Assembly (NCBI GenBank): GCA_003599575.1 | Contig: QZKV01000194.1 | Coordinates: 1-64,000 of the forward strand | DNA length: 64,000 nt | Direction of reading: 5' to 3' | Origin: Desulfobacteraceae bacterium | GTDB lineage: Bacteria > Desulfobacterota > Desulfobacteria > Desulfobacterales > Desulfosarcinaceae | Part shown: positions 1,425-47,976 of the stretch, in pieces | Layout: each line of letters begins with the position of its first letter | How positions within the stretch are numbered: position 1 is the stretch's first letter | Made by a program: the position numbers and the translations under genes | The notes under the pieces: generated by a model | Told to the model about the DNA's origin: nothing | Databases searched by the model: none | What the model saw: only the letters and a program-made list of their open reading frames with translations

Positions 1425-1452
1425 TAAACTAGCCTGTGCGAGGACTTTAGAT

Positions 1453-2331: not shown

Positions 2332-2418
2332 AAAAGATTCCTCCCTCGGTCGAAAGGACCCATCGGCCTCTTGCGGCTTTTTACGCTTCCGTCAAGAATG
2401 ACGGTCCCAACCGGCCCA

Positions 2419-2454: not shown

Positions 2455-2464
2455 AGCCGCAGCC

Positions 2465-3208: not shown

Positions 3209-3236
3209 TTGACGATCGGGGTGGAGTTTCTAAATA
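3209..3236 (+). promoter_or_regulatory. Candidate sigma-70 promoter of the cytochrome/rnf operon
   Basis: TTGACG and TAAATA are separated by 16 bases and end 28 bases before the cytochrome start codon. This is a reasonable match in the right place, but not unique evidence. Confidence 0.4.
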
Positions 3237-3264
3237 ATTCTAAGAGAGTAAGGGACTTGCGCAG

Positions 3265-3753: not shown

Positions 3754-3814
3754 GCCTATTCGAATGCTTTTAGGAATCGACGTTTTTCAATTGCAGCCCA
3801 GTAAAGGTTAAATC

Positions 3815-6056: not shown

Positions 6057-6057
6057 C

Positions 6058-6645: not shown

Positions 6646-6674
6646 TCGCTGTCAAGTAATAGGAGTTGAACGTC

Positions 6675-7298: not shown

Positions 7299-7313
7299 CC
7301 ACAGGAGATCACC

Positions 7314-7883: not shown

Positions 7884-7893
7884 AAATAGAACT

Positions 7894-7988
7894 CCGCCCC
7901 GGGCGGATTGGGCAACCGATTTCTGCACAACCGTTCGGAGCTTCCTGTTCTGAACGGCTTGTTGTTTATAAAGGCGGCGGCATGCCGC
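7894..7988 (+). other. Three inverted repeats in the rnfA-rnfB gap
   Basis: The 172-base gap contains CCGCCC-C-GGGCGG at 7894-7906, CCGTTC pairing with GAACGG at 7931-7957 (extended by ACAA/TTGT with small mismatches), and the 12-base palindrome GCGGCATGCCGC at 7977-7988. The second hairpin is followed by a T-containing stretch but not a clean T run. The other gaps in the operon are shorter than about 60 bases, so this could be an attenuator, RNA-processing site or internal control point. No function is shown. Confidence 0.5.
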
Positions 7989-8055
7989 GGATTACCTGCG
8001 CCGGCGACCGTCCCGATTCGCGTAAAGAACCCCGAGAGGTTCTGAGGAGGATTTT

Positions 8056-10134: not shown

Positions 10135-10658
10135 CCGTAGCGCCGAATTTATGCAAATTCCCATATCCGCGGCCCGCCTTATCCAGGACGGCGGACATGG
10201 CGACTATCGGTTCAACCCGTGCGCGCGCAAACCGCGGCCTGTTCCCAATACGCTGCTTTATTTTCTTCCCCAAGGCGCGCAAAGCCGCTTTTGTTCGGCA
10301 ATGCCGAACCAATAGGCTGGACGGCGATCTCAACTGCCTGTGATTAAAATTAAAAATTAAATTGGCCCCGTTTGCACGTTGACAGGCGCATTGCAGTCTG
10401 CCATATTCATTCTGCTTCATAATTTTATGTATCTATAATGGCTGATCGATGTCCATCTACTGAAGGTCAGTAACGGACTTCGAACGGCCATATTCCTTTC
10501 GCCGGACGGCGGATGGGAATCGTCCCCAACCCCCATCAAGAGGCATCTTACGGCGCGATCAGGTTGCTTACCGTACATATATGTTTCCGAAAGGAGGTGT
10601 CTTCTTTTTCAGCCATCCAAAAACAACCGATTCACCTTATACCCACAAGGAGGATGAT
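10135..10658. other. Intergenic region upstream of the TRAP operon
   Basis: 524 bases without a convincing gene. Visible items are a short perfect hairpin (GTTCGGC-AAT-GCCGAAC at 10293-10309, no T run), an A/T-rich stretch around 10341-10365, a TATAAT at 10434-10439, a promoter-like pair at 10379-10407 and the palindrome ACATATATGT near 10574. It probably carries the promoter and leader of dctP. Confidence 0.5.
10379..10407 (+). promoter_or_regulatory. Candidate promoter for dctPQM
   Basis: A perfect TTGACA is followed 17 bases later by CATATT. A separate TATAAT at 10434 lacks a good -35 partner at standard spacing. Both are more than 200 bases before dctP, implying a long leader if either is used. 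Confidence 0.35.
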
Positions 10659-11726
10659 ATGAGAGGCAAATCATTTATTATCGGTACACTGGTTCTTTTG
10701 CTGGTCTGCGTCGGGGCGCTGAATATCGGCGCCGGCAAAGCAGATGCCGCGGAAAAAGCGATCAAATGGAAGATGCAAACGCACTGGCCCGCTTCCAGCC
10801 CTTCCTTTGCAGCCAGTGCCCAGGTCCTCGTCAAAACGCTTAAGGAGAACACCAACGGCCGTTTGGAAATCGAGTTGTTCCCGGCGGATGCGCTTGTCCC
10901 GTCCAAAGAGCTTTTCAACGCGGTCAAACGCGGCATGATGGAAATCGTGATCACATCCTCCGCCTATCCCCGCGACCAGGTGCCCCTCATGGATGTCTGC
11001 TCCGGGCTGCCCATGAATTTCGACAGCCCCTGGGAAGCCGCCTACTTCCATAAGGAGATGGGTTTTGACAAAATGGTCTCCGATGCCTTTGCCCAACACG
11101 GGCTTTACTACTGGCCCGATAAAGTCTACCCCACCGAGCTGTCCCTCAAGAAGCCGGTTCGCAAGTTCGAAGATTTCAAAGGTCTGAAGTTGCGTTCGTC
11201 AGGCATCTTACAGGTTTACCTCACATCCCTCGGCGCTGCCGCCATGATGCTGCCGGGCAGTGAAATTTACGCCGCGCTGACTTCCGGCGTGGTCGACGGC
11301 GCCCATTGGGGGGCCGTGCAAGGCAGCAACAGCATGGGCTTTTACGAAGTCAGCAAATTTCACCTGCGCCCCGCCCTCAACGTCGCCGCCACCGACATTG
11401 TGTTGATCAACATGAAGGCCATGGGAGCTCTGCCGGCCGATATTCAGCAAATTGTGAGGAAAACGCTGGAGGAGCACTTCTGGGAGCGCACCAAAGAGTA
11501 CGAGATCCTGGAAGCAAATGCCATGACCAAAGTACAGAAAGAAAAAGGGGTCGAACTCATTCAGTTGGGCCAGGAAGATGTAAAGAAGATGGAGGCTGCG
11601 GCAATGGCCTTATGGGATGATGTGGCCAAGAGGCATCCGGACAATGCCAAAGCGGTCCAAATGCTGAAGGATTTCCATGCCTCGGATAAATCCAGTGAAG
11701 TCAAAAAGCTCAAGGATTCCCATTAA
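10659..11726 (+). CDS. dctP: TRAP transporter substrate-binding protein (DctP family)
   Basis: Periplasmic solute receptor of a tripartite ATP-independent transporter. The 355-residue protein has a Sec signal peptide (MRGKSF..., hydrophobic core, cleavage near ADAAEK) and DctP features including the MQTHWP opening strand, LFPADALVPSKELF, the LKLRSSG arginine region that in DctP proteins contacts the carboxylate of the ligand, and LTSGVVDGAHWG. The start at 10659 follows AAGGAGGATGAT; an upstream open stretch lacks signal-peptide character. With dctQ and dctM it forms a complete uptake system, likely for an organic acid. The nearby GlcD gene hints at a 2-hydroxy or keto acid, which is inference. 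Confidence 0.9.
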   Translation: MRGKSFIIGTLVLLLVCVGALNIGAGKADAAEKAIKWKMQTHWPASSPSFAASAQVLVKTLKENTNGRLEIELFPADALVPSKELFNAVKRGMMEIVITSSAYPRDQVPLMDVCSGLPMNFDSPWEAAYFHKEMGFDKMVSDAFAQHGLYYWPDKVYPTELSLKKPVRKFEDFKGLKLRSSGILQVYLTSLGAAAMMLPGSEIYAALTSGVVDGAHWGAVQGSNSMGFYEVSKFHLRPALNVAATDIVLINMKAMGALPADIQQIVRKTLEEHFWERTKEYEILEANAMTKVQKEKGVELIQLGQEDVKKMEAAAMALWDDVAKRHPDNAKAVQMLKDFHASDKSSEVKKLKDSH

Positions 11727-11836
11727 TTGATGGAACTCTGAGCGCTGATGTTCCCGGCGCAGGTATGCGCTGTTCAAACGGGGCATCCGGTCGTCTCGCA
11801 ACGAACGGGTGCCCCCTGTTCACATGGAGGCAAGGG

Positions 11837-12379
11837 GTGCAAATTCTAAATGCGGTACTGCGCTTTATCGACAACTTGAACGACTGGGTCGGCCGGGTGC
11901 TCTCACTGAGCATTCTGCTCATGTTCGTGCTGGTGCTGATGGAGGTGATCCGCCGTTATTTCTTCAACTCGCCGACGGTCTGGGGCAATGAACTGACCCA
12001 GTTGATTTTCGGCGCTTACGTGATTCTTTCCGGCGGCTACATCCTCCGATACGGCGGTCATGTCAATGTGGATATCTTTTATGCGCGCCTTTCCCCCAAG
12101 CCCAAGGCGCTGCTGGACATCATCACCTTTATTTTGTTTTTTCTTTTCTGCGGAATGCTTCTGATTTACGGCGGCCAACTGGCCTGGGAATCCCTGATCA
12201 CATGGGAACATACCCAATCGGCCTGGAACCCTCCGGCCTATCCGTTCAAACTGATGATTCCCCTGGGTGCCTTTTTGCTCCTGCTTCAAGGAATCGCCAA
12301 GCTGATACGCGATATTCTGATTTTGACCACCGGTACAAGCATTGCGACTGGACAGACTGCGGAAAAGGAAATCCTATGA
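11837..12379 (+). CDS. dctQ: TRAP transporter small membrane subunit (DctQ family)
   Basis: About 180 residues with four hydrophobic segments, the normal plan of the small TRAP membrane subunit that bridges receptor and DctM. The family-typical RRYFFNSPTVWGNELTQLIF lies after the first helix. GTG at 11837 is chosen because GGAGG at 11826-11830 is correctly spaced and the first helix then starts near residue 15. The stop overlaps the dctM start (ATGA). Confidence 0.85.
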   Translation: MQILNAVLRFIDNLNDWVGRVLSLSILLMFVLVLMEVIRRYFFNSPTVWGNELTQLIFGAYVILSGGYILRYGGHVNVDIFYARLSPKPKALLDIITFILFFLFCGMLLIYGGQLAWESLITWEHTQSAWNPPAYPFKLMIPLGAFLLLLQGIAKLIRDILILTTGTSIATGQTAEKEIL

Positions 12380-13689
12380 GTATCGAGCTTCTGACACTTT
12401 TATTCTTCCTGTCATTGTTCCTTTTTCTCTTCCTGGGCTTGCCGCTTTCGTTTGTCCTCGGGGGAGTATCCATTATTTTCCTTTACATGACCTGGGGAAC
12501 GGCGGGTTTTTATATGGTTGCGGCGCAAACCTGGGGCGCCATGGAAAAGTTCACCCTGGTCGCCATCCCCCTGTTCATTTTCATGGCCATGATCCTGGAA
12601 AGATCCGGCACGGCCAATGACCTCTATGACATGATGTATTTGTGGTTCGGGCGGGTGCGCGGCGGGCTGGTGATCGGCACGCTGGTGATCTGTACCATTT
12701 TCTCTGCCATGTGCGGCATCAGCGGCGCCGCCGTGGTCAGCATGGGCGCCATTGCCCTGCCCTCGATGCTGGAACGCGGCTATGACAAAAACCTGGCTGT
12801 GGGCTGCATCAATTCGGGCGGCGGCTGGGGCATCCTCATCCCGCCCAGCGTCATCATGATCCTTTATTCCCTGATCACGGGCGAATCGGTGGGCAGAATG
12901 TTTGCCGGAGGCGTGCTGCCGGGACTTTTGCTGCTCGGCGTGGTCTCCTCCTATGTCCTCATACGCTGTATTTTGCAGCCGCATCTGGGGCCCGCCCTGC
13001 CGCCCGAACAGCGTGGCGACTGGCCCAGGAAGTTCAAGGCCCTCAAGGCGATCATCCTGCCGGTCGGCATCGTATTCGGCGTTCTGGGCTCGATTATTTA
13101 CGGGGTGACCACGCCGACAGAGGCAGCCGCCGTAGGGTTGCTGGGATCGTTGATTTCGGCGGCGGTCTACAAGAAACTGACCTGGGCCCTGGTCTGGGAG
13201 GCCAGCGTGCGCACCTTTCGTTTGACCGGCATGATCATGTGGATTCTTTTCGGTGCATACGCTTTCACGGCGGCCTATCATAGTATGGGCGGTACGCAAC
13301 TGATCGAACATGTGATGCAGTACGTACCCGGCGGTCGCTGGGGCACCATCGTTTTCATCCAATTGCTGCTGCTTTTGTTGGGCATGGTGCTCGATCCGGC
13401 CGGCATCATGATGATCACCATCCCGGTGTTCCTGCCGATCATCAAGGCCCATGGCTTCGATCCACTGTGGTTCGGCATCCTTTTCATCATGAACATGAAC
13501 ATCGGCTACATGACACCGCCGTTCGGATTCAACCTCTTCTACTTGAAGGCGATCGTGCCGCCTTCCATCACTATGGGCGACATCTACCGTTCGGTGATTC
13601 CTTTTACGATCATGGAAAGCATCGGCATGCTGCTGGTCATGTTCTTCCCGGCAATTGCCACGTGGTTGCCGAACAAGTTCTTCGGATAA
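12376..13689 (+). CDS. dctM: TRAP transporter large membrane subunit (DctM family)
   Basis: 437 residues and about twelve hydrophobic segments; the transport channel, expected to couple uptake to Na+ or H+. It contains the DctM stretches AIPLFIFMAMILERSG, SGAAVVSMGAIALPSM, GGGWGILIPPSVIMI, GVTTPTEAAAVG and the late IGYMTPPFGFNLFYLKA. It is translationally coupled to dctQ and followed by a strong terminator. Confidence 0.93.
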   Translation: MSIELLTLLFFLSLFLFLFLGLPLSFVLGGVSIIFLYMTWGTAGFYMVAAQTWGAMEKFTLVAIPLFIFMAMILERSGTANDLYDMMYLWFGRVRGGLVIGTLVICTIFSAMCGISGAAVVSMGAIALPSMLERGYDKNLAVGCINSGGGWGILIPPSVIMILYSLITGESVGRMFAGGVLPGLLLLGVVSSYVLIRCILQPHLGPALPPEQRGDWPRKFKALKAIILPVGIVFGVLGSIIYGVTTPTEAAAVGLLGSLISAAVYKKLTWALVWEASVRTFRLTGMIMWILFGAYAFTAAYHSMGGTQLIEHVMQYVPGGRWGTIVFIQLLLLLLGMVLDPAGIMMITIPVFLPIIKAHGFDPLWFGILFIMNMNIGYMTPPFGFNLFYLKAIVPPSITMGDIYRSVIPFTIMESIGMLLVMFFPAIATWLPNKFFG

Positions 13690-37231: not shown

Positions 37232-37262
37232 AGGCTTACGGATGTTTCGTAAGCCTATTTTT
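37232..37262 (+). terminator. Terminator after tRNA-Pro
   Basis: AGGCTTACG pairs perfectly with CGTAAGCCT over a seven-base loop, then ATTTTTA. Confidence 0.85.
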
Positions 37263-37850
37263 AGGGTGTTTCTTGCCTGGGGGCCATCTTGGTATTGTTA
37301 GATAATAAACTAGGATGATCTCCTCTTTCCTGGCGGGTGGCTTCGGCAAACCCGTTGCCGTGTCCGTCCGAAGACAGGAAATGACAGCCCGAATAAGTCA
37401 CCGAAGAGACTCAGAACCGAGCTTTAGTAAATCGCTTCTTTATCACAAGGACGTTGAAAGAAAATTTGCTGCAAAGACCGATAGATGCCAAGAGGTGCCC
37501 GGCTTTCACGGGAAGGCGAAGTAAAAAGCAGGACACCGCAAAAATCGTAAATAGCCACCATGATCTCGCACCAAGGGAATTTGTGTGAGAAACCTATCCT
37601 TGCGCACCGCCGTTCGCCCTTGAATCCATTCGCCCCCAGACCTCACTTTTTCGCAACCCAGCCCTAATTTTCGCAAGATCGCCTTAGACGGGTTGACATA
37701 TCCCTGTTAGTGTACCCAGAAGCTTCCCTTTCACGGAAGCATCAGAGCGAAATACCACTCATCACAATTATAAAATACCACTCATCACATTATAAGGCCG
37801 GGGAAATCGCAGCGGAGTTAACTTTCAAGTTTTTCGGGAGGTGCAATCAT
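37263..37850. other. Upstream control region of the methyl-transfer island
   Basis: 588 bases with no convincing gene; a 69-residue open frame at 37315 has no ribosome-binding site or family. It includes a lone TTGACA at 37693 without a good -10, a GCTTCC/GGAAGC inverted repeat near 37730-37748 and the tandem direct repeat at 37751-37795. The drop in GC and the repeats suggest regulatory DNA. Confidence 0.5.
37751..37795 (+). promoter_or_regulatory. Tandem 23-bp direct repeat, candidate AraC-type operator
   Basis: AATACCACTCATCACAATTA(TAA) is followed immediately by the same unit lacking one A. The period of about two helical turns, head-to-tail order and position 55 bases before the first gene of the island fit binding of an AraC-family activator to direct half-sites. 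The island encodes one such regulator at 45846. Confidence 0.55.
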
Positions 37851-38534
37851 ATGGATACACTAACGAAAATTGCTCAACTCGTGGAAAAGGGACAAATCCA
37901 GGAGTCTAAGGCCACAACTCAAAAGGCCTTGGATGTCGAAAAAATTCCCGCCATGGAAATTCTCAACAAGGGTCTCATTGTCGGACTGGATGCCGTCGGC
38001 AAGGCTTTCAGTTGTCAAAAGGCTTTTGTGCCCGAACTCATGACGGCGGGCATGGCCATGAAGGAGTCATTGGAGGTCTTGCGTGCGACCTTCGAATCCT
38101 CTGACGCTCCCCCCATGGGCACCGTCGTCATCGGCACCGTCGAGGGCGACGTCCACGATGTGGGCAAGAACATCGTGGCCATGATGCTGCAAGGGGCAGG
38201 ATTCAAGGTCCACGACTTGGGAATCGACATCCCTGTGGCAAAATTCGTGGAGGCGGTAAAAAAATACCAACCGGACATCCTGGCGCTTTCGGCGCTGTAC
38301 ACTCCTACCCGACTGGCCATGGCCGAAACACTCGAGGCCATGGTGGTCAATGGGCTGCGCAACAAAGTCAAGGTGATCATCGGCGGGGCGCCGATCGACC
38401 AGAACTTTTGCAACCTGATCAAGGCGGACGGCTATGCGCCCGATGCGCCCCAAGGGGTTCAAATGTGCAAAAAATGGCTTCGCAGCGCCAGTTCCGAATC
38501 CCACCCACACGGGCTGAAGGAGGAATCAGCATGA
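37851..38534 (+). CDS. Corrinoid (B12-binding) methyl-carrier protein 1
   Basis: 227-residue methyltransferase cognate corrinoid protein (MtbC/MtvC type). N-terminal helical cap domain (about residues 1-85) and a B12-binding Rossmann domain with the base-off motif GDVHDVGKNI; H102 should coordinate cobalt. The later LSALYTPT and VKVIIGGAPI segments fit the GG-type nucleotide-loop contact. It shuttles a methyl group between a substrate methyltransferase and a tetrahydrofolate methyltransferase, both encoded directly downstream. ATG follows GGGAGGTG, and the stop overlaps the next start (ATGA). Confidence 0.92.
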   Translation: MDTLTKIAQLVEKGQIQESKATTQKALDVEKIPAMEILNKGLIVGLDAVGKAFSCQKAFVPELMTAGMAMKESLEVLRATFESSDAPPMGTVVIGTVEGDVHDVGKNIVAMMLQGAGFKVHDLGIDIPVAKFVEAVKKYQPDILALSALYTPTRLAMAETLEAMVVNGLRNKVKVIIGGAPIDQNFCNLIKADGYAPDAPQGVQMCKKWLRSASSESHPHGLKEESA

Positions 38535-39691
38535 AAAACGATAAAGTCTATGAGGATAGACGGCAGAAGATCAATGAGTTGCGGGCCAAAAGCGAAAAAC
38601 TGACCCCGCGGGAGCGCTGCGTCAAAGCCATCAACCACGAGGATTCCGACCGGGTGCCCATCGACAATTGGATGGTCCCGGAGATCAAGAAGCGCTGCAT
38701 GACCTACTGGGGTTTGGATAGCGAAGCCGAGTTGTTGGATTTTCTGGGTGTGGACGTCCGTGACAACTACGGGCCTGCCTACGTGGGGCTGGAGTTTAAG
38801 ACCCACCCCGACGGCACGGTGGAGGATTTGTGGGGGGTCCGGCGCAGGAAAGTGGTCTACGGCAAGGACACCGACCATCAGGGCACCTTCACGGAAGTGG
38901 CCCATTCGCCGTTGGAACACATGAAGACGGTGGAGGAAATCAACGCCTATGACCGCTGGCCGTCTCCGGATTGGTGGGACTATTCCAAAGTCAAGGAGGA
39001 AGGCGCGGCCTTGCACCCCAAATACTTTGTGCTCAACAAAGGCGACCGCCTGGACCGCACCGCCCAGCTCAAGCCCATGATGTACCTGCGGGGAATTCAG
39101 CAGACCTTCGTTGATCTGGCCCTAAACCCCAAAATCGTTGAGTGTATCCGTGACCATGTCGTGAACTACTTTGTCAATTACAACCCCAAGGTCTTTGAAG
39201 CCAGCGGCGGGGAATTCGACATGTTCATGATGGGTGACGACATGGGCGGACAGGGCGGGCCCCTGATCGGCCTGGACATGTGGCGGCGCTATTTCAGGGA
39301 CGGGTTCCGCACATATTGCGACATCGCCCACAAGTTCGGCCTGAAGGTGATGTACCACACCTGCGGCGACGTCTACGCCCTTATTCCGGATTTCATCGAA
39401 AATGGTCTGGACTGTCTGCAATCGCTCCAGCCCCAGGCCACCAACATGGACATCAAACGCTTAAAGCAAGAGTTCGGCAAGGATCTCAGCTTTCAGGGGG
39501 CCATGGACATCCAGCAGGTCCTGCCCCTCGGCACACCCGAAGACGTCCGCAAAATGGTGAAGTACGCCATGGACAACGCCAAGAAGGACGGCGGCTACAT
39601 TATCTGCACATCGCACAACATCCAGGTGGACACGGCCATCGAGAACGTGGCGGCCTTGTTCGAGGCCTACCACGAATACGGCGTCTATTAG
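38531..39691 (+). CDS. UroD-family corrinoid methyltransferase (candidate substrate methyltransferase)
   Basis: 386 residues of the uroporphyrinogen decarboxylase/MtaA/MtvB superfamily. Zinc ligands expected of methyltransferase members appear as H276 and C278 (YHTCGDV) with C359 (IICTSHN), unlike true UroD, which lacks them. In acetogen O-demethylases (vanillate and syringate systems) this family provides the enzyme that takes the methyl from the substrate to the corrinoid protein. Overlap with the corrinoid gene supports that pairing. The methyl donor (aryl methyl ether, another methoxy compound, or other) is not shown. Confidence 0.88.
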   Translation: MKNDKVYEDRRQKINELRAKSEKLTPRERCVKAINHEDSDRVPIDNWMVPEIKKRCMTYWGLDSEAELLDFLGVDVRDNYGPAYVGLEFKTHPDGTVEDLWGVRRRKVVYGKDTDHQGTFTEVAHSPLEHMKTVEEINAYDRWPSPDWWDYSKVKEEGAALHPKYFVLNKGDRLDRTAQLKPMMYLRGIQQTFVDLALNPKIVECIRDHVVNYFVNYNPKVFEASGGEFDMFMMGDDMGGQGGPLIGLDMWRRYFRDGFRTYCDIAHKFGLKVMYHTCGDVYALIPDFIENGLDCLQSLQPQATNMDIKRLKQEFGKDLSFQGAMDIQQVLPLGTPEDVRKMVKYAMDNAKKDGGYIICTSHNIQVDTAIENVAALFEAYHEYGVY

Positions 39692-39769
39692 AGCAAAGTC
39701 GGGCGCCGGCTGGAATGCCCGGAGGCAGGGTCTGATCGTTCATTTGCTGAAAGGGAGGGCCATTACCCC

Positions 39770-40576
39770 ATGGAAATCATCGGCGAAAAAATCAACACCA
39801 CACGCAAGGCTGTAGAGGCGGCGGTCCGGCAGCGTGACGCCGCCTTCATCCAGGATCTGGCCCGGCGGCAGGCTGAGGCGGGAGCCGCCTACCTGGACAT
39901 CAACTCAGGCTTGCCTCTGGACCCCAGGGAGGAAGCCGCCGACTTCGAGTGGCTCGTGCCCCTGATCCAGTCAGTGGCGGATGTGCCGCTTTGCTTGGAT
40001 ACCGCGCATCCGCAGGTGATCGAAGCGGGTTTGCGTCTGCACAAGGGGCGGGCCATGATCAACTCGGTGAACGGCGATCCGGCCGTGCTGGAATCCATTC
40101 TGCCCTTGGCCGGACGTTACCAATGCAAGGTCATCGCCCTCACCACCAGCCGTGAGAAAAAAATCCCGGCCAACAGCGCCGAACGGTTGGAAATCGCCAA
40201 GGCCATCGCCCACCGCGCCGGAGAGTATGGGGTGCCCCTGGAAGACATCTATTTCGACCCCTTGGTGCTTTCCTTGGCCACCGACCAGAGAAACGCCTTG
40301 GTATTCCTGGAGACCTTAAAGGCCATCAAACTCGCGCTGCCCGGCGCTAAAACGGTCTCCGGGTTGAGCAATATTTCCTTTGGGCTTCCCAAACGCAAGC
40401 TGCTGAATCAGGCCTTTTTGGTATTGGCCGGAAACGCGGGCATGGACGCGGCCATTGCCGACCCCACTGACAAAGCGCTTATGGCCATGGTAACGGCCAC
40501 CGAAGCACTGGCCAACAAGGATGAGTACTGCGCACGGTATTTACAAGCCTTCCGGGAAGGTCGGCTGGACCTTTAA
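39770..40576 (+). CDS. Methyltetrahydrofolate:corrinoid methyltransferase (pterin-binding)
   Basis: 268 residues with the dihydropteroate-synthase-like barrel. Seen: IIGEKINTTRKAV at the start, the AAYLDINSGL strand with pterin-site Asp/Asn, PLCLDTAHPQVIEAGL, MINSVNG, YFDPLVLSLATD and TVSGLSNISFGLPKRKLLN, which is highly characteristic of MeTr/MtvA/MtgA proteins. It transfers the methyl from the corrinoid protein to tetrahydrofolate (reversible). Position third in the operon matches a complete two-step demethylase. Confidence 0.92.
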   Translation: MEIIGEKINTTRKAVEAAVRQRDAAFIQDLARRQAEAGAAYLDINSGLPLDPREEAADFEWLVPLIQSVADVPLCLDTAHPQVIEAGLRLHKGRAMINSVNGDPAVLESILPLAGRYQCKVIALTTSREKKIPANSAERLEIAKAIAHRAGEYGVPLEDIYFDPLVLSLATDQRNALVFLETLKAIKLALPGAKTVSGLSNISFGLPKRKLLNQAFLVLAGNAGMDAAIADPTDKALMAMVTATEALANKDEYCARYLQAFREGRLDL

Positions 40577-40669
40577 AAGCGCCCGGCCGCCGATGGGCTG
40601 GGGTTGTCGGATCTGGATATTGGAAAGCGCGGCCCGGAAAAACAGAAACTTTAGAAAGGGGGGTGTTGT

Positions 40670-41149
40670 ATGAGAAAAATCTTTTTCATGCTCTCGGCGG
40701 TTTTGATCCTGGTCGGGGCGGACGCTGGTTTATCGGCGGAAAGCGCCAAACCAGGCGACTTGAAAGAAGTGAATCTGGTGCCGGCCAAGGGTGTGGAGAG
40801 TCAGGCCCAAGGCAAGTTGGCGATCAACACGGCCAACGGAACCGATCTCGCCATCCAGATCAGCGGGCTGGACCCCAAAGGCGTCTATACCGCATTCTTT
40901 GTCAATAACAAAAGTTTGATGTTCGAGGGTATCGGCCCGGCACCGCATGTTCTCACTGTCAGCGAAACGGGGGAAGTCAATTTCAGGACGACCATGAAGA
41001 AGAACATCTACAAGCGCTTCGTCGAAGTGGGCATCTATCTCAACCCGGGCGGCAAGCCCATCGGCAATCCCGTAGGCGTGAAAGCGGCCCTGGGATCCCT
41101 GGTCGCGCCGGAAAAACCCAAGCCCATTTTGATGGGCAAACTCAGGTAA
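40670..41149 (+). CDS. Exported hypothetical protein in the methyl-transfer operon
   Basis: 159 residues with a clear Sec signal peptide (MRKIFFMLSAVLILVGADAGLSAES) and a beta-rich remainder (LAINTANGTDLAIQISGLDP, VYTAFFVNNKSL) that resembles small immunoglobulin-like or CHRD-like folds. No family is recognised. It is co-directional, with strong ribosome-binding site (AAAGGGGGG), between the methyltransferase and the permease genes. It could help capture or handle the substrate in the periplasm; this is inference only. Confidence 0.7.
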   Translation: MRKIFFMLSAVLILVGADAGLSAESAKPGDLKEVNLVPAKGVESQAQGKLAINTANGTDLAIQISGLDPKGVYTAFFVNNKSLMFEGIGPAPHVLTVSETGEVNFRTTMKKNIYKRFVEVGIYLNPGGKPIGNPVGVKAALGSLVAPEKPKPILMGKLR

Positions 41150-41213
41150 AAACCCGACTGAATTGGCAGGGGGTCTCTATTGAAATCTTAACAGCCCGCA
41201 CGCAGGAGGAACA

Positions 41214-42575
41214 ATGACCACAAGGACGGTTTATGATACGAGCACTATGACCAAGACGGACATCCTTTCCGCTTGGCGCAGCTGGCAGTTCAGGACCTTC
41301 GTCACCATCTGGATTACCTATGGTACCTTTTACCTGTGCCGCGCCAACATGTCCTTCGCCTTGCCCGGCATTTCGGAAGAGTTCGGCCTTTCCAAAACCA
41401 TGCTGGGCCTTTTGGGCACAACCCTCTTCATCATGTATTCCCTGGGCCAGTTCGTCAACGGCCAGCTAGGGGACAAATACGGGGCCCGCAAGCTTGTCTT
41501 CGTGGGCATGATCGCCTCGGCCCTGCTCAACATCGTCTTCAGTTTCTCCACCGCCTTCGCCTTCATGCTGGTGGTGTGGGGCTTGAACGGCTACTTCCAG
41601 TCCATGGGCTGGGCGCCCCAGGTCAAGACCATGGCCAACTGGTTCACCGTGTCCCAGCGGGGCAGATGGATGGGGCTCATGGGCTCCTGCTACCAGATCG
41701 GCAACGCCTACTCGTGGCTGCTGGCCTCCTATCTGGCGGCCAACTACGGCTGGCGCAGCCTGTTCTGGGTGCCGGCCTGCTTGTTTCTCATCTCCGCGAT
41801 CCATTTTGTCACCCGCCTGCGCAACGCCCCGGAAGAAGTGGGGCTGCCGACCATCGAGCAATTGCGCAAGGTCGCCAACGATGAAGTCGCTGTGGTGAAA
41901 TCGACGCTCGACCCCACCTCCGCCCCGGTGTGCCAGGTGACTGAGGACAAGCATATGGGCTTTGCTTACACCTGCCAGGTGTGCCTGACCAACCCGCGCA
42001 TCTGGGGGGTGTCCCTGGCCTTCTTCTGCCTGGACATCATCCGCTACGGCTTCTTCTATTGGGCACCGGTCTTCCTGATCGAGGTCCAGGGGGCCTCTAT
42101 CAGCAGCGCCGGCCTGACGGTCGCCGTTCTGCCCCTGGCCGGATCGGCGGGCGCCATCGTGTGCGGCTGGGCCACCGGAAAATTCTTCGACAACCGCCGC
42201 GCCCCTGTCGTCTGCCTCTGTCTTTTCGGCCTGGCCGTTTTCTCCTATCTGTTCTACTATGCGCCGCCGGGAGCGTGGGTTTGGAGTCTGGTCTGCCTGG
42301 CCGTGATAGGCTTCTGCACTTACGGGTCCCATGTCCTTATGGTGGGGCATGCGGCCCAGGATTTCGCCGGCCGCAAGGCCGCGGCTTCGGCTGCAGGCTT
42401 CATCGACGGCTTCGGTTACATTGGCGCGGCTATGACCGGCATTTTCACCGGTTGGCTGGTGGACCATTACGGCTGGACGGCCGGTTTCTGGTACTGGATC
42501 ATCGCCGCCCTGGTGGCCGCATTCATCATGTTGGCCCTGTGGCGGGTGCCTGTCGTGGAAGAATCCGAGTGTTAA
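41214..42575 (+). CDS. MFS permease, OPA-like
   Basis: 453 residues with about twelve membrane segments. The pattern YGTFYLCRANMSFALPGI, the ANGYFQSMGWAP-like loop and KTMANWFTVSQRGRWMG resemble the organophosphate:phosphate antiporter group (GlpT/UhpT, and related organic-anion permeases). Its place inside the island, behind AGGAGG, suggests import of the methylated substrate or export of the demethylated product. Confidence 0.88.
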   Translation: MTTRTVYDTSTMTKTDILSAWRSWQFRTFVTIWITYGTFYLCRANMSFALPGISEEFGLSKTMLGLLGTTLFIMYSLGQFVNGQLGDKYGARKLVFVGMIASALLNIVFSFSTAFAFMLVVWGLNGYFQSMGWAPQVKTMANWFTVSQRGRWMGLMGSCYQIGNAYSWLLASYLAANYGWRSLFWVPACLFLISAIHFVTRLRNAPEEVGLPTIEQLRKVANDEVAVVKSTLDPTSAPVCQVTEDKHMGFAYTCQVCLTNPRIWGVSLAFFCLDIIRYGFFYWAPVFLIEVQGASISSAGLTVAVLPLAGSAGAIVCGWATGKFFDNRRAPVVCLCLFGLAVFSYLFYYAPPGAWVWSLVCLAVIGFCTYGSHVLMVGHAAQDFAGRKAAASAAGFIDGFGYIGAAMTGIFTGWLVDHYGWTAGFWYWIIAALVAAFIMLALWRVPVVEESEC

Positions 42576-42609
42576 GGCCTGTCTAACCCATGATCGACCC
42601 TATCCAAAT

Positions 42610-42658
42610 AGGGACTCCTTATTCCAGCCTTTCCACAGGCAGGCCATAGGGAGTCCCT
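42610..42658 (+). other. Stem-loop between permease and activator genes
   Basis: AGGGACTCC pairs perfectly with GGAGTCCCT over a 31-base loop in which GCCT and AGGC can also pair. No T run. It might stabilise or separate the two parts of the transcript. Confidence 0.5.
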
Positions 42659-42697
42659 TGATCAGTCCTGCATCCGATGAGCGGTAAAGAGGCGCGG

Positions 42698-44548
42698 ATG
42701 AAAATTAAGGTTTCATTTTTGCCCGGCGGGCGGGAAGCGCAGGTGGACGAAGGGGTGTGTCTCCTGGAAGCCGCCCGTCTTGCCGGTGTGGGTCTGGAGG
42801 GCGACTGCGGGGGGCTGGGAAGCTGCGCTAAATGCCGGGTGATAGCCCACGAGGGCCTCGCGCCGCCCACCGTTTTGGAACAGGAGCGGCTCGATAATCA
42901 GGACATCGCCCAGGGGATGCGCTTGGCCTGTCAGGCCCAGGTAAAAGGTCCGGCCCAAGTGACGCTATTGCCGTCGAGTACGGCCAGGCACCATATTCTG
43001 GAAGAGGGTGTCTCCCGCGCCGTGCGGCTCCAGCCCGCCCTGACCAAGCACTTCCTGCCTTTGGACGTGGGCGACTGGAAAAGAAGTGGACCATTGGCCG
43101 CTATGATCCGGGAACGGCTGGGGCGGGAAGGCGTGCGCAGGGCCGATTTTAGTGTTCGCGCTTTGCAGAGCCTGGGCGCCATCGATCCGGCCGGCCAAGA
43201 GGGCCTCACCGCCCTCCTTTTCCAAAACCAGGTCTTGGGGTTTGAGCCCGGCGATACCTCCGGCCAGCTTTGGGGACTGGCCGTGGACATCGGCACCACT
43301 ACGGTGGTGGGCTATCTGCTGGACCTGACCCACGGCCGGATCGCCGCTGTGGCGTCAGCCCTGAACGAGCAACAGATCCACGGCGCCGATGTCATCACCC
43401 GCATCGATTACGCTCTGCACCACCCCCAAGGACTCGATCGCCTGCGGGAATTGGTGCTGTCCACCATCAACGGCATCATCGAGCGTATCTGCCAACAGCA
43501 GGGCCTGCCCGATCAGGCCATCTATAGTTTGATGGTCGTGGGCAACACCACCATCAACCAACTTTTCTGGGGCATCCCCCCCCGGCTGTTGATCCGGCCG
43601 CCCTACAATCCGATTGCCATGGAGGGCCTGAGCGCATCGGCCAAAGAGATGGGCCTGCGGATCAATCCCCTGGGCATGGTGTTTTCTCTGCCGCTGGTCT
43701 CCGGTTTCATCGGCTCGGATACCGTCGGGGTCGTGCTGGCCACCGGCCTGCACAAGAGCCGCAAACCCAGAATCGCCTTGGATATAGGCACCAACGGCGA
43801 AATTGTTCTGACCGACGGGCACCGCATGGCGGCCTGCTCCTGCGCCGCAGGACCGGCATTTGAGGGCGCTCACATCCAATGCGGCATGCGGGGCTGCAGT
43901 GGGGCCATAGACCGGGTCGATTTCAAGCACGGCCGCATCGCCTGCCACGTCATTGACGAGGTCCCCCACCAGGGCATCTGCGGCTCAGGCCTCGTGGACG
44001 CTGTATCCGGACTCCTGGCTTCCGGCCTCATCACCGCTGACGGCCGGCTGCTGACCCGGCAGGAAGCCGCCGGCTCGCCCTTTGCCGACCGCCTGAGCGA
44101 GGAACCCTTAACCCAGTTCCGCCTTACCGAGAAAATGCTCCCGCCGGCCAGCCGCCAGGTGGTGATCACACAAAAGGACATCCGGGAGTTGCAGCTGGCC
44201 AAAGGCGCCATGCTGGCGGGCGTGAGCATATTGCTTGACATTTTGGACCTGGGACCTGAAGATATCCACGAGGTCTTGCTGGCGGGGGCTTTCGGCAACT
44301 ATGTGCGCCCCCGGAGCGCCTTGGGCATCGGTCTGCTGCCGACCTTTCCCCGGGCGAGAATCCGCCAGGTGGGTAACGCAGCCGGCAGCGGCGCGCGCAT
44401 GGCCCTGCTCTCCCAAGCAGCCATTAAAGAGGCGATACGTATTGCCGAGCGCATCGGGCACATCGATCTGGCTCGGTATCCTGACTTCCAACACCATTTT
44501 TTGAAAGGCTTGGCCTTCCCTCATGAGCTGGCACGACCTGATCCCTAA
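42698..44548 (+). CDS. Reductive activator of corrinoid proteins (RACE; ferredoxin + ASKHA ATPase)
   Basis: 616 residues. N-terminal plant-type [2Fe-2S] domain with cysteines at 37, 43, 46 and 78 (DCGGLGSCAKC, LAC), a linker, then an actin-like ATPase (DUF4445/RACE) with phosphate loops AVDIGTTTVVGYLLDL and ALDIGTNGEIVL and the adenosine segment AGAFGNYVRP. It uses ATP and low-potential electrons to reduce inactive Co(II) corrinoid protein to Co(I). ATG at 42698 has GAGG nearby; an upstream ATG at 42677 has none. The next gene overlaps its end by 26 bases. Confidence 0.93.
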   Translation: MKIKVSFLPGGREAQVDEGVCLLEAARLAGVGLEGDCGGLGSCAKCRVIAHEGLAPPTVLEQERLDNQDIAQGMRLACQAQVKGPAQVTLLPSSTARHHILEEGVSRAVRLQPALTKHFLPLDVGDWKRSGPLAAMIRERLGREGVRRADFSVRALQSLGAIDPAGQEGLTALLFQNQVLGFEPGDTSGQLWGLAVDIGTTTVVGYLLDLTHGRIAAVASALNEQQIHGADVITRIDYALHHPQGLDRLRELVLSTINGIIERICQQQGLPDQAIYSLMVVGNTTINQLFWGIPPRLLIRPPYNPIAMEGLSASAKEMGLRINPLGMVFSLPLVSGFIGSDTVGVVLATGLHKSRKPRIALDIGTNGEIVLTDGHRMAACSCAAGPAFEGAHIQCGMRGCSGAIDRVDFKHGRIACHVIDEVPHQGICGSGLVDAVSGLLASGLITADGRLLTRQEAAGSPFADRLSEEPLTQFRLTEKMLPPASRQVVITQKDIRELQLAKGAMLAGVSILLDILDLGPEDIHEVLLAGAFGNYVRPRSALGIGLLPTFPRARIRQVGNAAGSGARMALLSQAAIKEAIRIAERIGHIDLARYPDFQHHFLKGLAFPHELARPDP

Positions 44549-44990
44549 AACCTCTATCTCCCAGGAAACCATGGAGGCCTTGGCCCCCGTCTTCGCGGCC
44601 CAGAAACTTTTCAACCAGGGGCACTATCCCGAGGCCGAGGCCGGTTTTTGCAAGGCCCTGGACCATTTCCCCCCCAAAAGCGCCGGTCGCGTATTGATTT
44701 ACAACAAACTGGGCATTCTCTACGAGAAAATCGGCGAGTCCCGGCAGGCTCTGGACAGCTATGAGAAAAGCGTACAAGAAGGGGCGCTGACCCCCTTCAC
44801 TTACCAGCGCATGTGTCAGCTGCACTTGGAAGCCAATCGCTTCCCCAAAGCTTTGGGCTGTGCCCAGCAGGGCATAAAGGTACTGAAAAAAGCCCGCACC
44901 AACCTCCCTCAGGAGATTTACTTCTGGTTCGTCTTTCAGAAGCTGAAGCGTAAAATCAACCACCGTCTGCGTTCTCCCAAGCGGGTCTGA
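44523..44990 (+). CDS. TPR-repeat protein
   Basis: 155 residues with two or three tetratricopeptide-like units (AAQKLFNQGHYPEAEAGFCKAL, YNKLGILYEKIGESRQALDSY, YQRMCQLHLEANRFPKAL). Basic C-terminus. Overlap with the activator gene implies coupled translation. TPR proteins mediate protein contacts, so it may dock activator, corrinoid protein or methyltransferases; no direct evidence. Confidence 0.75.
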   Translation: MSWHDLIPKTSISQETMEALAPVFAAQKLFNQGHYPEAEAGFCKALDHFPPKSAGRVLIYNKLGILYEKIGESRQALDSYEKSVQEGALTPFTYQRMCQLHLEANRFPKALGCAQQGIKVLKKARTNLPQEIYFWFVFQKLKRKINHRLRSPKRV

Positions 44991-45172
44991 ACGCTGGCAG
45001 GCTGTGGATAAACTGCGCCTCGGACTGAGGGGCAAAACACGGTGAGGCGACAGCGCACCGGCCTAAATATTCAAACCAGCTGAAGGAAAGCGGCGCCACG
45101 GCTATCGCCGGATTTCAGCCGTGGGCGACCATGGTCCACGGGTGGAGAAATGTCGATCTCTTGGGAATAACA

Positions 45173-45853
45173 ATGAATTTGATTCGACAACTCGAATGTG
45201 CCATCGTCAAGGGAAACACGAAAAAAGTCGCTGCCATAACCCAGGAGTGTTTGCAGGAAGGCATTCCACCCGCTGCCATCATCGAAAAGGCAATCCTGAA
45301 AGGCCTAGCGGTTGTCGGACAGAAGTGGAAGACCTATGAGTATTTCATCCCCAATGTGCTCGTTTCCGCCATGGCAACCAAGCTTTCTTTGGGCACGCTG
45401 CAATCGGCGCTCAAGGCGTCACCGCCGCCCACTATCGGAAGGGCTGTGGCAGGCACTGTTCGAGGGGACGTTCACGATATCGGCAAAAACATCCTGCTGA
45501 TGTTTATGGAATCTTCGGGATTCGAGGTCATCGACCTGGGCATCGATGTCCCGCCCGAGCATTTCGTCAAGATGGTCAAAAGCGCCGAGCCGGACCTCCT
45601 CCTGCTCTCCTGCCTTTACACGGTGACCATGCACGCCATGGAAGATACGATCATCTCCCTGCGCAAAGCCGGTCTGAAGGGAAAAGTCAAAACAATTGTC
45701 GGAGGCGCCCCCATCACCCAGGAGTTCGCGGACCAAATCGGGGCCGATGGATTCGGGGTGGATGCCGTCGACGGGGTGAAAAAAGCAAAGGAGCTGATTG
45801 AAAAATCGAAACCCCTGAAACATTTCTCCTCTGCTGGAAAAAGAAATGCCTAA
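45173..45853 (+). CDS. Corrinoid (B12-binding) methyl-carrier protein 2
   Basis: 226 residues, same two-domain plan as the first corrinoid protein but clearly diverged: N-terminal cap MNLIRQLECAIVKGNTKKVAA, base-off motif GDVHDIGKNI with cobalt ligand H101, and LLLSCLYTVTMHAM in the second half. No methyltransferase of its own follows. It may serve the same UroD-type enzyme with another donor, act in regulation, or partner an enzyme encoded elsewhere. ATG at 45173 is preferred over 45131 because the family N-terminus begins there; its ribosome-binding site is weak. The end overlaps the regulator gene by 8 bases. Confidence 0.88.
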   Translation: MNLIRQLECAIVKGNTKKVAAITQECLQEGIPPAAIIEKAILKGLAVVGQKWKTYEYFIPNVLVSAMATKLSLGTLQSALKASPPPTIGRAVAGTVRGDVHDIGKNILLMFMESSGFEVIDLGIDVPPEHFVKMVKSAEPDLLLLSCLYTVTMHAMEDTIISLRKAGLKGKVKTIVGGAPITQEFADQIGADGFGVDAVDGVKKAKELIEKSKPLKHFSSAGKRNA

Positions 45854-47165
45854 AAGCTTGGTATCCAATTTACGGGAAGAAAAGCTTTTGCTTCGAATGC
45901 TGGGTTCCTTCCGGGAAGCCATGAAACTGGAGGTGTATCTCTTTCCGATGACGAACAGGGAAGGGGTTCGCTCCTTCAAGGAGATGGGCCACCCCTATTG
46001 TCGGGCCATCCGCAGCTGCCCGCGGGGCGAATACAATTGCCTGCGGGACATCAACCGGGCCATCAACTTGTCGGAAAAAACCGGAGAGCCGTACATTTTC
46101 CAATGCCATGCCGACATGATCGAATTCACCGCGGCCTTCAAGGCCAGGGACGGAAATGCGGCGGCCTTTGTTTGCGGGCCGATGCTGCTGCGTCCCCTCA
46201 ATACGCAAGTACGGCAGGGGATCGTGGATGGGACCAAGAACCTCGATCCGGAGCAATCGCGTGCCCTGGCAAGTTATATAGATAGTATTCCGATCTACTC
46301 GGAACGAAGAGTCCAGGCGGCGGCGGACCTGCTCTTTCTGATCGCCACCTATTTTTCCAAAATTGATCTGCTGACCCTGCACCAGCAGCATGAAATCTCT
46401 TTCCAGCAATCACTGCTCGCCGAAGGGCTGGTTTTGCGCAAGATTTCGGAACTGGATGAAGAAGAACCATCGCCCCAGCCGCCTTCCCCGAAAAGGGACA
46501 TATTCAAGGAAAACGAACTGATCGATCTGATCAAAATCGGCGACCGGAAAAGGGCCAAAGCGCTGGTAGACGAAATACTGGGGACCGCCCTATTCCGAAG
46601 CCATGAGCACATCGGGATTCTCAAAGCCAGGGCCTTGGAGATTATCTTCGTCATCGCAAGGGCGGCAGTGGAAGCGGGGGCCAACCTGGAGGAGATTCTG
46701 GGGTTCAAATATCAATACGTGCAAAACCTTTCCAAGGACGACTCTCAGCAAACCCTCTACCATTTCTTGATGAAAGCCTTCGATCAGCTTTTCGAATGCA
46801 TTTATCAGAACCGGAACATCCAGCATACGGCAATCTTCGCCAAAGCAAAGGAATTTATCTGGAAAAATCATAATCAGGAAATCTCTTTGAAGAAACTGGC
46901 GGAGGCCGTTGGGATCAACCCCTATTATCTAAGCCATCTGTTTCGTGAGGAAATGGGCACATCCTTTGTCGAATATCTCACCTCGGTGCGCGTATCCATT
47001 GCCAAAAACCTGCTTAAACAGACAACCATGAGCACCATGGAGATCTGCCTGGCGGTTGGATATATGGACCCAAGTCATTTCGCCAAGGTTTTCAAGAAAC
47101 AAGAGAAAGTCTCCCCATCTGGATACCGGAAAAAACTTGCCGAGGCTGAGATAACCGGGTCATGA
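45846..47165 (+). CDS. PocR-domain AraC family transcriptional regulator
   Basis: 439 residues. N-terminal PocR ligand-binding domain (about residues 15-175) with its cysteine pattern CRAIRSCPRGEYNCLRD and FQCHADMIEF. A linker follows, then a C-terminal AraC double helix-turn-helix (LKKLAEAVGINPYYLSHLFREEMG, and MEICLAVGYMDPSHFAKVFKK). PocR domains are linked with sensing small alcohol or related ligands. Its coupling to the second corrinoid gene makes it the likely activator of the island, and the direct repeat at 37751 the likely site. Confidence 0.9.
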   Translation: MPKSLVSNLREEKLLLRMLGSFREAMKLEVYLFPMTNREGVRSFKEMGHPYCRAIRSCPRGEYNCLRDINRAINLSEKTGEPYIFQCHADMIEFTAAFKARDGNAAAFVCGPMLLRPLNTQVRQGIVDGTKNLDPEQSRALASYIDSIPIYSERRVQAAADLLFLIATYFSKIDLLTLHQQHEISFQQSLLAEGLVLRKISELDEEEPSPQPPSPKRDIFKENELIDLIKIGDRKRAKALVDEILGTALFRSHEHIGILKARALEIIFVIARAAVEAGANLEEILGFKYQYVQNLSKDDSQQTLYHFLMKAFDQLFECIYQNRNIQHTAIFAKAKEFIWKNHNQEISLKKLAEAVGINPYYLSHLFREEMGTSFVEYLTSVRVSIAKNLLKQTTMSTMEICLAVGYMDPSHFAKVFKKQEKVSPSGYRKKLAEAEITGS

Positions 47166-47322
47166 GCATTCCTTCAACTCTACGGCCGGTAAAGCCCCAC
47201 GGGCAACTTCCCCCCTGGAAACGATCCCCCGGTGCCATCGTCGGGTTGGGGGCCAAGCAGCAGGACCACTCCCAACAAGTCGGCTTTCACAATGATGCAG
47301 GCGGCTGGAAAGTTTATCCACC

Positions 47323-47976
47323 TCAAACACGGGCCTTTTCTTCAACGTAGGGCGCTTTGCGGTCATCGCAGAGCCGCCGCGGGCAGATTTGGCAGTTCAC
47401 AAAGGTCGCTTCCGTCGGAAAATACAGACCGGCGACCGATCGTCTGGGCAGCATCAGCAGGTTGTCCGTCAACCGGACACCTATGGAGGCTTCCACACCG
47501 GGCAACAGCGCAAACAGGTCCCTCTGGCCTTCGATCGGCCAGTCCTCCAGCGACCCGGGAGTCATGGAAGATATTTTCTCCAAGGCAAACCGGGCGCACA
47601 GGTGGCTTTCGAAAGCGCGGCGGGTTTCCCTCATGGCGTGATTCGCGATTTCCCCCAAAATATACTTGTCAAGCAGATCGGTCGTTTCCTCCATGAGCGC
47701 ATCCACGGCAGCGCCAGCGGTCATCACAAAGGGGAAGACACGCCCCACTGCGTTTAAATGATCGCGCAACACTCGGCTGCGCAGATGCACGCCTTCAATT
47801 GTAACGCCTGTCTCCCCCTTATCCTCTACGAAGCACGCCCGGTAGGCTCCTTGGGCGGCAATCACCCCCCCGGCAAGTTTCACAAGCCGATTAACGTGTT
47901 GCCGATCGAAGACTCGCAGCCGTTTGGCAACGTGTGCGAGGTTGAGCTTGAGGGTATCGATTCCGAAAAGGTGCAT
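47323..47976 (-). CDS. MetH-activation-domain-like protein
   Basis: 217 residues resembling the S-adenosylmethionine-binding reactivation domain of cobalamin-dependent methionine synthase: TTDLLDKYILGEIANHAMRE, then SMTPGSLEDWPIEGQRDLF (the SPGYGDWP-like core), IGVRLTDNLLMLPRRSVAGLYFPT. It ends in a cysteine motif CQICPRRLC, not part of the MetH domain and possibly a metal site. Stand-alone proteins of this kind occur beside corrinoid methyltransferases. It is convergent with the regulator gene, so it may be controlled separately. A reactivation or assembly role for one of the corrinoid proteins is inferred. Confidence 0.8.
   Translation of the reverse strand: MHLFGIDTLKLNLAHVAKRLRVFDRQHVNRLVKLAGGVIAAQGAYRACFVEDKGETGVTIEGVHLRSRVLRDHLNAVGRVFPFVMTAGAAVDALMEETTDLLDKYILGEIANHAMRETRRAFESHLCARFALEKISSMTPGSLEDWPIEGQRDLFALLPGVEASIGVRLTDNLLMLPRRSVAGLYFPTEATFVNCQICPRRLCDDRKAPYVEEKARV

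What the first reader, a model, noticed from the sequence alone, without database searches (positions are those of the whole stretch)
37851..47976. Complete corrinoid methyl-transfer island with unknown substrate
Corrinoid protein, UroD-type methyltransferase with zinc ligands, pterin methyltransferase and RACE activator are the four parts of acetogen O-demethylases. Here they sit with an MFS permease, an exported protein, a TPR protein, a second corrinoid protein, a PocR/AraC regulator and a MetH-activation-like protein. The extra parts and the likely sulfate-reducer background suggest a demethylation system not yet described in detail.
Basis: partly seen in the sequence, partly recalled or inferred. 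Interest (0 to 1): 0.82.

Follow-up and report, generated by a model that had tools for sequence, protein, structure and literature searches.

The report
Methyl-harvesting operon with regulatory corrinoid protein
A sulfate-reducing bacterium carries a horizontally acquired gene set that looks built to strip a methyl group from an unidentified compound using a vitamin B12-type carrier protein, and a second carrier protein in the set more likely helps to sense the methyl donor than to process it.

Summary
The parts are real and in the stated order: corrinoid protein C1, UroD-type methyltransferase, methyl-THF methyltransferase (MT2), exported protein, MFS permease, RACE activator, TPR protein, second corrinoid protein C2, PocR/AraC regulator. 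The core order is complete in five operons (window included) and partly kept in others; C1-UroD adjacency holds in 11 of 12 named loci whose upstream flank is held. The operon sits at a variable site and moved between lineages.

Two corrections. (1) The UroD-type enzyme is not of the MtvB O-demethylase lineage: a strongly supported branch separates them. Its likely metal ligands are H277, C279 and H363 (15 of 15 relatives); C360 is not conserved. 'O-demethylase' is an analogy; the substrate is unknown. (2) C2 is probably not spare catalysis: it varies with PocR and not clearly with UroD or C1, and a separate clade of corrinoid proteins adjoins PocR-AraC regulators in Bacillota-type genomes. 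I read C2-PocR as a sensor module, untested. The MetH-activation-like gene does not travel with the operon.

New variant of a known kind; the regulatory corrinoid protein is the boldest reading the data allow.

The parts
37751..37789 (+). Perfect 16-bp direct repeat, period 23, 61-100 bp before C1: candidate AraC-type operator
   Evidence: 16 of 16 identical, 100 shuffles reach at most 12; only these two places in the window. Not seen before C1 in the other loci examined, so weak.
37851..38534 (+). C1, corrinoid protein (predicted catalytic methyl carrier)
   Evidence: start with ribosome-binding-like GGGAGG; DxHxxG kept
38531..39691 (+). UroD-type methyltransferase (predicted MT1)
39770..40576 (+). 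MT2, methyl-THF:corrinoid protein methyltransferase
   Evidence: PRK07535 above cut-off; 2yci 3e-63 and 4o0q 4e-58
40670..41149 (+). Exported protein, SOD-like fold, subclade only
   Evidence: found in 5 of the other loci
41214..42575 (+). MFS permease, GlpT/OPA-like
   Evidence: GlpT 1pw4 5e-47
42677..44548 (+). RACE/RACo-type reductive activator of corrinoid proteins
   Evidence: 3zyy 5e-99; 2Fe-2S cysteine pattern
44523..44990 (+). TPR protein, subclade only
   Evidence: found in 4 of the other loci
45173..45853 (+). C2, second corrinoid protein (predicted partner of PocR)
   Evidence: DxHxxG kept; trees; co-variation
45846..47165 (+). PocR-domain AraC-family regulator
   Evidence: PF10114 9e-21, PF12833 7e-24
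47323..47976 (-). MetH-activation-like protein, not part of the conserved unit
   Evidence: PF02965 weak; 0 of 17 loci

Best explanation
A self-contained, horizontally moved operon for using the methyl group of a small organic anion. (1) The GlpT-like permease imports the methylated compound. (2) The UroD-type enzyme, probably with a metal at H277/C279/H363, moves the methyl group to Co(I) of C1. (3) MT2 passes it to tetrahydrofolate. (4) Methyl-THF is oxidised, or enters acetyl-CoA, in the host's C1 pathway. (5) RACE re-reduces C1 when the cobalt is oxidised. (6) C2 and PocR form a separate sensor module that switches the operon on, with the state of C2's corrinoid as the likely signal. Shown here: parts, order, conservation, movement between lineages, lineage of the UroD enzyme, co-variation of the genes. 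Inferred: every reaction, the metal, the transported compound, the role of C2. Substrate estimate: methoxylated organic acid about 40%, methylthio acid about 30%, other about 30%.
For: Families. Conserved order. UroD co-varies with C1, MT2, MFS and RACE (Spearman 0.75-0.81; 0-14 of 2000 permutations). Metal-like triad invariant in 15 of 15 and aligned with the MtaA ligand positions. Outlet for methyl-THF: MTHFR in 13 and CdhC/AcsB in 11 of 14 carrier genomes, the window's genome included. C2 co-varies with PocR (0.77, 3 of 2000) but not clearly with UroD (0.30, 204 of 2000) or C1 (0.14, 568 of 2000). Corrinoid gene at the PocR-AraC gene in 19 of 20 fetched regions.
Against: No activity, expression or substrate data. 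One ortholog, L072 (Poribacteria, 52%), has no other operon gene in 14.9 kb, and only 4 of 27 rows of the sister UroD group have a corrinoid gene within about 1.5 kb. RACE is not cognate in L062 and L067, and MT2 is not beside UroD in L067 and L068. C2 and PocR are missing in L063 and L071 although 4.7 and 7 kb downstream are held. PocR also tends to co-vary with MT2 (0.74, 78 of 2000) and RACE (0.79, 73 of 2000) on 5-6 loci.
Confidence: 0.68

Rival explanations
1. In function it is an ordinary aryl-methyl-ether O-demethylase, though of another UroD lineage: it demethylates lignin-type methoxyaromatic acids.
For: Same four parts as Mtv/Mto systems, MFS permeases included; organic-anion-type permease.
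Against: Different UroD clade; HxC...H site absent from the Moorella MtvB-type rows, whose enzyme works without zinc according to PMC13222342 (passage). The same passage says some other O-demethylases do contain zinc, so a metal alone decides nothing.
Confidence: 0.3
2. The donor is an S-methyl compound such as 3-methylthiopropionate; the metal holds the thiolate leaving group, as the related MtaA-type site handles a thiol.
For: Ligand positions shared with MtaA (MtaA chemistry recalled). A corrinoid plus UroD plus MFS set for methylthiopropionate in Methanosarcina (mtpCAP) is recalled, not tested.
Against: Window enzyme separates from the MtaA-like Moorella rows in the tree; third ligand is His, not Cys; no sulfur-metabolism gene in the conserved unit.
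Confidence: 0.25
3. C2 is a second catalytic carrier, for another methyltransferase or another condition, and its place beside PocR is only operon order.
For: C2 keeps DxHxxG and is sister to C1. The genomes were picked for holding methyl systems, so adjacency is partly expected. In 11 of 20 pairs no second carrier beside a methyltransferase gene was seen in the stretch held.
Against: C2-PocR present together in 7 operons and never one alone where the flank is held; co-variation pattern; PocR-adjacent corrinoid proteins group apart from catalytic ones in Bacillota-type genomes; adjacency holds in three orientations.
Confidence: 0.35
4. The UroD-type protein is not a methyltransferase but another UroD-fold enzyme carried along with a methyl-transfer set.
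For: Its model matches decarboxylases and MtaA about equally; sequence kinship to MtaA is weak (7e-6); most sister-group loci show no corrinoid gene nearby.
Against: C1-UroD adjacency in 11 of 12 named loci with the upstream flank held; co-variation with C1, MT2 and RACE; no other MT1 candidate in the operon.
Confidence: 0.08

Closest known systems
Moorella thermoacetica MtvABC vanillate O-demethylase (PMC13391211, section 2.6 read; loci L132, L134)
   Same: UroD-type MT1, corrinoid protein and pterin methyltransferase; product methyl-THF
   Different: MT1 in another UroD clade and without HxC; no C2-PocR pair, permease or RACE detected beside it
Moorella methanol cluster MtaABC with adjacent corrinoid gene and PocR-AraC gene (L131)
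   Same: Catalytic carrier plus a second corrinoid protein next to a PocR-AraC gene
   Different: MT1 is MtaB, not UroD-type; pair is convergent. The Moorella PocR-AraC frame carries an internal TAG in this genome
Archaeal Mto systems (PMC8630106, PMC8359953; passages)
   Same: MT1, carrier, MT2, activator and MFS permeases in one cluster
   Different: MtoB is MtvB-related according to the paper; transfer to H4MPT; sequences not compared here
Cdm chloromethane system (PMC13222342; sections 8 and 9 and passages)
   Same: UroD-fold MT1, corrinoid protein, MT2
   Different: CdmB is closest to MtoB and has no zinc according to the paper; sequence not compared here
Type 1 mlp gene clusters (PMC10418091; abstract, first part of Results and passages)
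   Same: UroD-type proteins with a corrinoid protein and RACE
   Different: Several Mlps per cluster and no H4folate methyltransferase there; here one UroD and an MT2
mec dichloromethane cassette (PMC9768040; passages)
   Same: Corrinoid methyltransferase parts with a PocR-domain regulator
   Different: PocR domain sits in a histidine kinase; several MT1s

Membership tests
MtvB/OdmB-type O-demethylase system | MT1, corrinoid protein, MT2 and activator present | tested here: met
MtvB/OdmB-type O-demethylase system | MT1 falls in the MtvB clade | tested here: not met
   Opposite sides of a 99* branch, 105-row short-search tree.
MtvB/OdmB-type O-demethylase system | Cleaves aryl methyl ethers | not testable with these tools
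   Needs an enzyme assay
MtaA/MtbA/CmuA methyltransferases | H-x-C...C zinc ligands | tested here: not met
   H277 and C279 fit; the Cys position aligns with invariant H363
MtaA/MtbA/CmuA methyltransferases | Scores over the curated cut-off of TIGR01463 (mtaA_cmuA) | tested here: not met
   45.1 bits against 235.4
RACE/RACo activators | RACo middle and C-terminal domains plus N-terminal 2Fe-2S domain | tested here: met
   All three over cut-off; cysteine pattern
Methyl-THF:corrinoid protein methyltransferases | PF00809 and PRK07535 over cut-off | tested here: met
Type 1 mlp gene cluster | At least Mlp2 and Mlp3 (two or more UroD-type genes) | tested here: not met
   One UroD gene in the operon
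Methanol MtaABC | MtaB as MT1 | tested here: not met
   No MtaB family among the ten proteins
PocR-AraC regulators paired with a corrinoid protein (pairing proposed here) | Corrinoid gene directly beside the regulator gene | tested here: met
   8-bp overlap of the listed ORFs in the window
PocR-AraC regulators paired with a corrinoid protein (pairing proposed here) | Corrinoid protein acts in sensing | not testable with these tools
   Needs genetics or binding tests

The most novel reading that the evidence does not exclude
PocR-AraC regulators of anaerobic methyl use work with a dedicated, non-catalytic corrinoid protein whose methylation or redox state is the signal. Such regulatory corrinoid proteins arose at least twice from catalytic carriers: once inside this Desulfobacterota operon (C2) and once in Bacillota.
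Probability: 0.42. Interest if true: 0.7.

Novelty: new variant of a known kind. Interest (0 to 1): 0.52.

Why it matters
It defines a UroD-type methyltransferase clade with its own operon, mainly in Deltaproteobacteria-type sediment MAGs, so that the methyl donor can be sought with a named set of proteins. If C2 is a sensor, it would explain why many anaerobic methyl clusters hold a spare corrinoid protein beside a PocR-AraC gene, and would open the question of how these bacteria detect methyl donors to direct test.

Tried and rejected
O-demethylase by similarity of C1 to PDB 1y80: rejected as evidence. 1y80 is a carrier of the Moorella methanol cluster (MtaB was recognised by eye).

C360 as third zinc ligand: rejected. 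It is Cys in 9, Ser in 4 and Gly in 2 of 15 rows. I could not measure distances in the model.

C2 as a redundant carrier: disfavoured, not excluded. The tests rest on 5-9 loci per gene pair, and some pairs across the two modules are high (MT2-PocR 0.74, RACE-PocR 0.79, RACE-C2 0.65).

Mis-binned contig: disfavoured by the trigger factor. GC shift as a mark of transfer: none (0.53-0.63 in the operon, 0.51-0.63 elsewhere). Empty site: seen in one (G001, L098) of five same-genus regions fetched; the other four show the trigger-factor side only or no PhoU match.

Conserved operator: the direct repeat is in the window only; of 11 other loci none repeats it, L070 has 13 of 16 at another period (shuffle maximum 13), and the L063 value came from masked bases.

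Named references: only Moorella could be reached. OdmB, VdmB, MtoB, CdmB, MtpA, MtsA and CmuA were not obtained. Plasmids gave 3 records, one covering most of the query at 31%. PDB by sequence with UroD alone: 0. CdmB is not among the fold rows listed, which shows nothing. The paper prints mtvB2 as Mothe_c12020; I found no UroD match near that position, so only mtvB1 was placed.

Literature: the ten searches listed no paper that, from title, start of abstract or the passages I read, describes this operon or a PocR-corrinoid protein pair. One search lists 2 papers with both terms; I read passages of one and only the start of the abstract of the other. Subscription journals are mostly not held.

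No control with AraC regulators lacking PocR, or with genomes not chosen for methyl systems, was run.

Rows dropped; 105 of 109 UroD-like ORFs (length limits, L022); the partial locus L073 is not in the tree. ORFs over 330 aa; nine loci; L064 (contig of the same length as L060's), L068, L069, L071, L072, L073 left out, also RACE of L062 and L067, MT2 of L067, and C1 hits standing in for C2 in L063 and L070; 30 of the 67 places, as the tool chose; labels given by adjacency; L193 left out.
Full report
What is there. The window is the first 64 kb of an 86.8-kb contig of a 6.45-Mb draft genome in 197 contigs. From 37851 to 47165 nine genes run on the + strand: C1 (37851-38534), UroD (38531-39691, its start overlapping C1's stop), MT2, an exported protein, an MFS permease, RACE, a TPR protein, C2 (45173-45853) and PocR/AraC (45846-47165, overlapping C2). 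A tenth gene, MetH-activation-like, follows on the other strand. A terminator-like stem of 11 pairs lies at 37232-37256 (the scan found 16 such sites, 13.6 expected, so only the long stem is notable).

A conserved unit. A scan of named genomes with a two-sequence UroD profile gave 16 loci. Thirteen have 52-94% identity: eleven titled as Deltaproteobacteria or their orders, one Bacillota, one Poribacteria; three others have 30-33%. The core C1-UroD-MT2-MFS-RACE-C2-PocR is complete in the window, L074, L064, L065 and L066. L062 lacks the cognate RACE in place, L067 lacks MT2 and RACE in place, and L063 and L070 stop after the TPR gene (L070 is held for only 1.5 kb beyond it). L071 (Bacillota) has C1-UroD-MT2-RACE with the permease upstream, and L072 (Poribacteria) has UroD alone; L068, L069 and L073 are contig pieces. 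C1 is beside UroD in 11 of the 12 named loci with the upstream flank held. The exported and TPR proteins occur only in loci of the subclade nearest the window. In an even draw of 395 genomes of the phylum, one clear ortholog appears besides the window's own (72%).

Movement between lineages. Identity to UBA5852 (L074) is 94% for UroD and MFS, 90% for C1 and MT2, 84% PocR, 81% TPR, 79% RACE, 78% C2, 74% exported protein, while the two genomes' trigger factors share 53%; six same-genus genomes share 69-74% trigger-factor identity with the window. Of 10 same-genus genomes eight have no UroD match and two only weak ones (1e-5, 1e-4). In one same-genus genome (G001) the flanking amidase and PhoU genes are 5.5 kb apart, against 18.5 kb here. 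The stretch here also holds a CoA-ligase-like protein, a FAD oxidoreductase, a histidine kinase, a LytTR regulator and a CMAS-type methyltransferase. The route of entry is not shown.

The UroD enzyme. The AlphaFold model is good (pLDDT 90.6) and matches UroD decarboxylases (Z 27.2, rmsd 3.0, 306 aligned) and MtaA (Z 26.7, rmsd 3.2, 306 aligned) equally. H277, C279 and H363 are invariant in 15 relatives. The profile alignment puts the residues of MtaA that I recall as zinc ligands (His237, Cys239, Cys316; offset 9 in the construct) on H277, C279 and H363. A metal is therefore plausible, in an H-x-C...H setting; it is not shown.

Not the MtvB lineage. For a named reference I searched 398 genomes of the phylum of the Bacillota carrier with the chain of PDB 1y80; one, G475, matches 100% and is taken as Moorella thermoacetica. 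PMC13391211 (section 2.6 read) gives mtaABC as Mothe_c11840-11860 and mtvB1 as Mothe_c03190. Scaled from the methanol cluster at 1.14 Mb, 03190 falls near 0.307 Mb, where the UroD gene L128 lies with MT2 and a corrinoid gene in the same 16 kb. L126 is its close relative in a second MT2-UroD-corrinoid cluster. In the 105-row tree the window clade (13 rows, 100*) is separated from these, and from the MtaA-like Moorella rows, by a 99* branch (short search, no outgroup, some long branches). One Moorella UroD row of unknown role, L122, lies on the window's side. The window clade's near relatives are uncharacterised; only 4 of 27 rows of its sister group have a corrinoid gene within the short loci held.

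Transport and host. The permease aligns with GlpT (5e-47); the arginines I recall as R45 and R269 are kept, and Q and Y stand at the positions I recall as K80 and H165. In nine orthologs YLCR and GQF are kept in 9; my pattern for the second arginine fitted 5 of 9 and was too narrow for the rest, of which L060 shows the arginine by eye. I infer an organic anion that is not a phosphate ester. Of 14 carrier genomes 13 hold an MTHFR, 11 a CdhC/AcsB and 8 a dsrB over cut-off, the window's genome all three.

C2 and PocR as a sensor module. Over 5-9 loci, UroD identities co-vary with C1, MT2, MFS and RACE (0.75, 0.75, 0.80, 0.81; 0, 14, 2 and 8 of 2000 permutations reach this). C2 co-varies with PocR (0.77; 3 of 2000) but not clearly with UroD (0.30; 204) or C1 (0.14; 568); PocR with UroD is 0.37 (150), with MT2 0.74 (78) and with RACE 0.79 (73) on few loci. 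C2 sequences form one clade (100/100) beside the C1 clade (98/85 for both together), so C2 probably came from the operon's own carrier. In 20 genomes (16 of the Bacillota set, picked for a 1y80-like protein, and four from this work) 30 of 67 PocR places were fetched. Twenty have a PocR-AraC protein like the window's, one of them in L074's own operon. Eighteen of the 20 have a corrinoid gene in the roughly 3.5-kb locus, against one of the other 10. Of 20 wider regions, 18 of them around these places and two around further places, 19 have a corrinoid gene next to the PocR gene, 18 within 80 bp by listed ORF ends and one at 663 bp. With Moorella's pair added, 9 of 20 also have another corrinoid gene beside a methyltransferase gene. 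The 20 PocR-adjacent corrinoid proteins of that set group apart from the catalytic ones (92/81, not starred); the starred branches force two changes of state, two origins if catalytic is ancestral. Orientation varies: 11 PocR then corrinoid gene, 9 convergent, 7 corrinoid gene then PocR (this operon); all 27 keep DxHxxG. The weak points are the selected genomes, the label by adjacency, the missing control, and an in-frame TAG in Moorella's own PocR-AraC gene.

Literature. Ten searches of the held library showed no description of this operon or of such a pair in what I saw; that is not proof of novelty. A PocR domain occurs in the histidine kinase of the mec cassette, where the authors suggest that it senses dichloromethane (PMC9768040, passages).

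Verdict.

Noticed in passing
L061 (G000:C62) 180-6369: A second corrinoid island in the same genome: UroD-type protein, corrinoid protein, RACE and a further UroD-like protein.
   Followed up: partly
G000:C196:1844-4025 and G000:C68:25175-27351: Two dsrB genes over the cut-off, each beside a dsrA-like match, in one draft genome with 6.93% contamination: a real second copy or a mixed bin.
   Followed up: no
whole genome G000: Only three B12-binding_2 (cap) domains, at C1, C2 and the C62 corrinoid protein: no canonical MetH cap domain was found, so methionine synthesis may use another enzyme.
   Followed up: no
window 40670-41149: Exported protein with a predicted Cu,Zn-SOD-like sandwich but one histidine, kept in part of the orthologous operons. 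Role unknown.
   Followed up: partly
L141 (G461:C31) 5390-12978: In the UBA5852 genome a protein 53% identical to the window's MetH-activation-like protein lies beside two UroD and two corrinoid genes.
   Followed up: no
G451: 35 UroD-family matches in one carrier genome, an unusual expansion.
   Followed up: no
G475:C1:1138296-1138781 (near L131): The PocR-AraC frame beside the Moorella methanol cluster carries an internal TAG: interrupted gene or sequencing error.
   Followed up: no
window 37751-37789: Perfect 16-bp direct repeat, period 23, before C1; candidate operator, not seen in the orthologs examined.
   Followed up: partly
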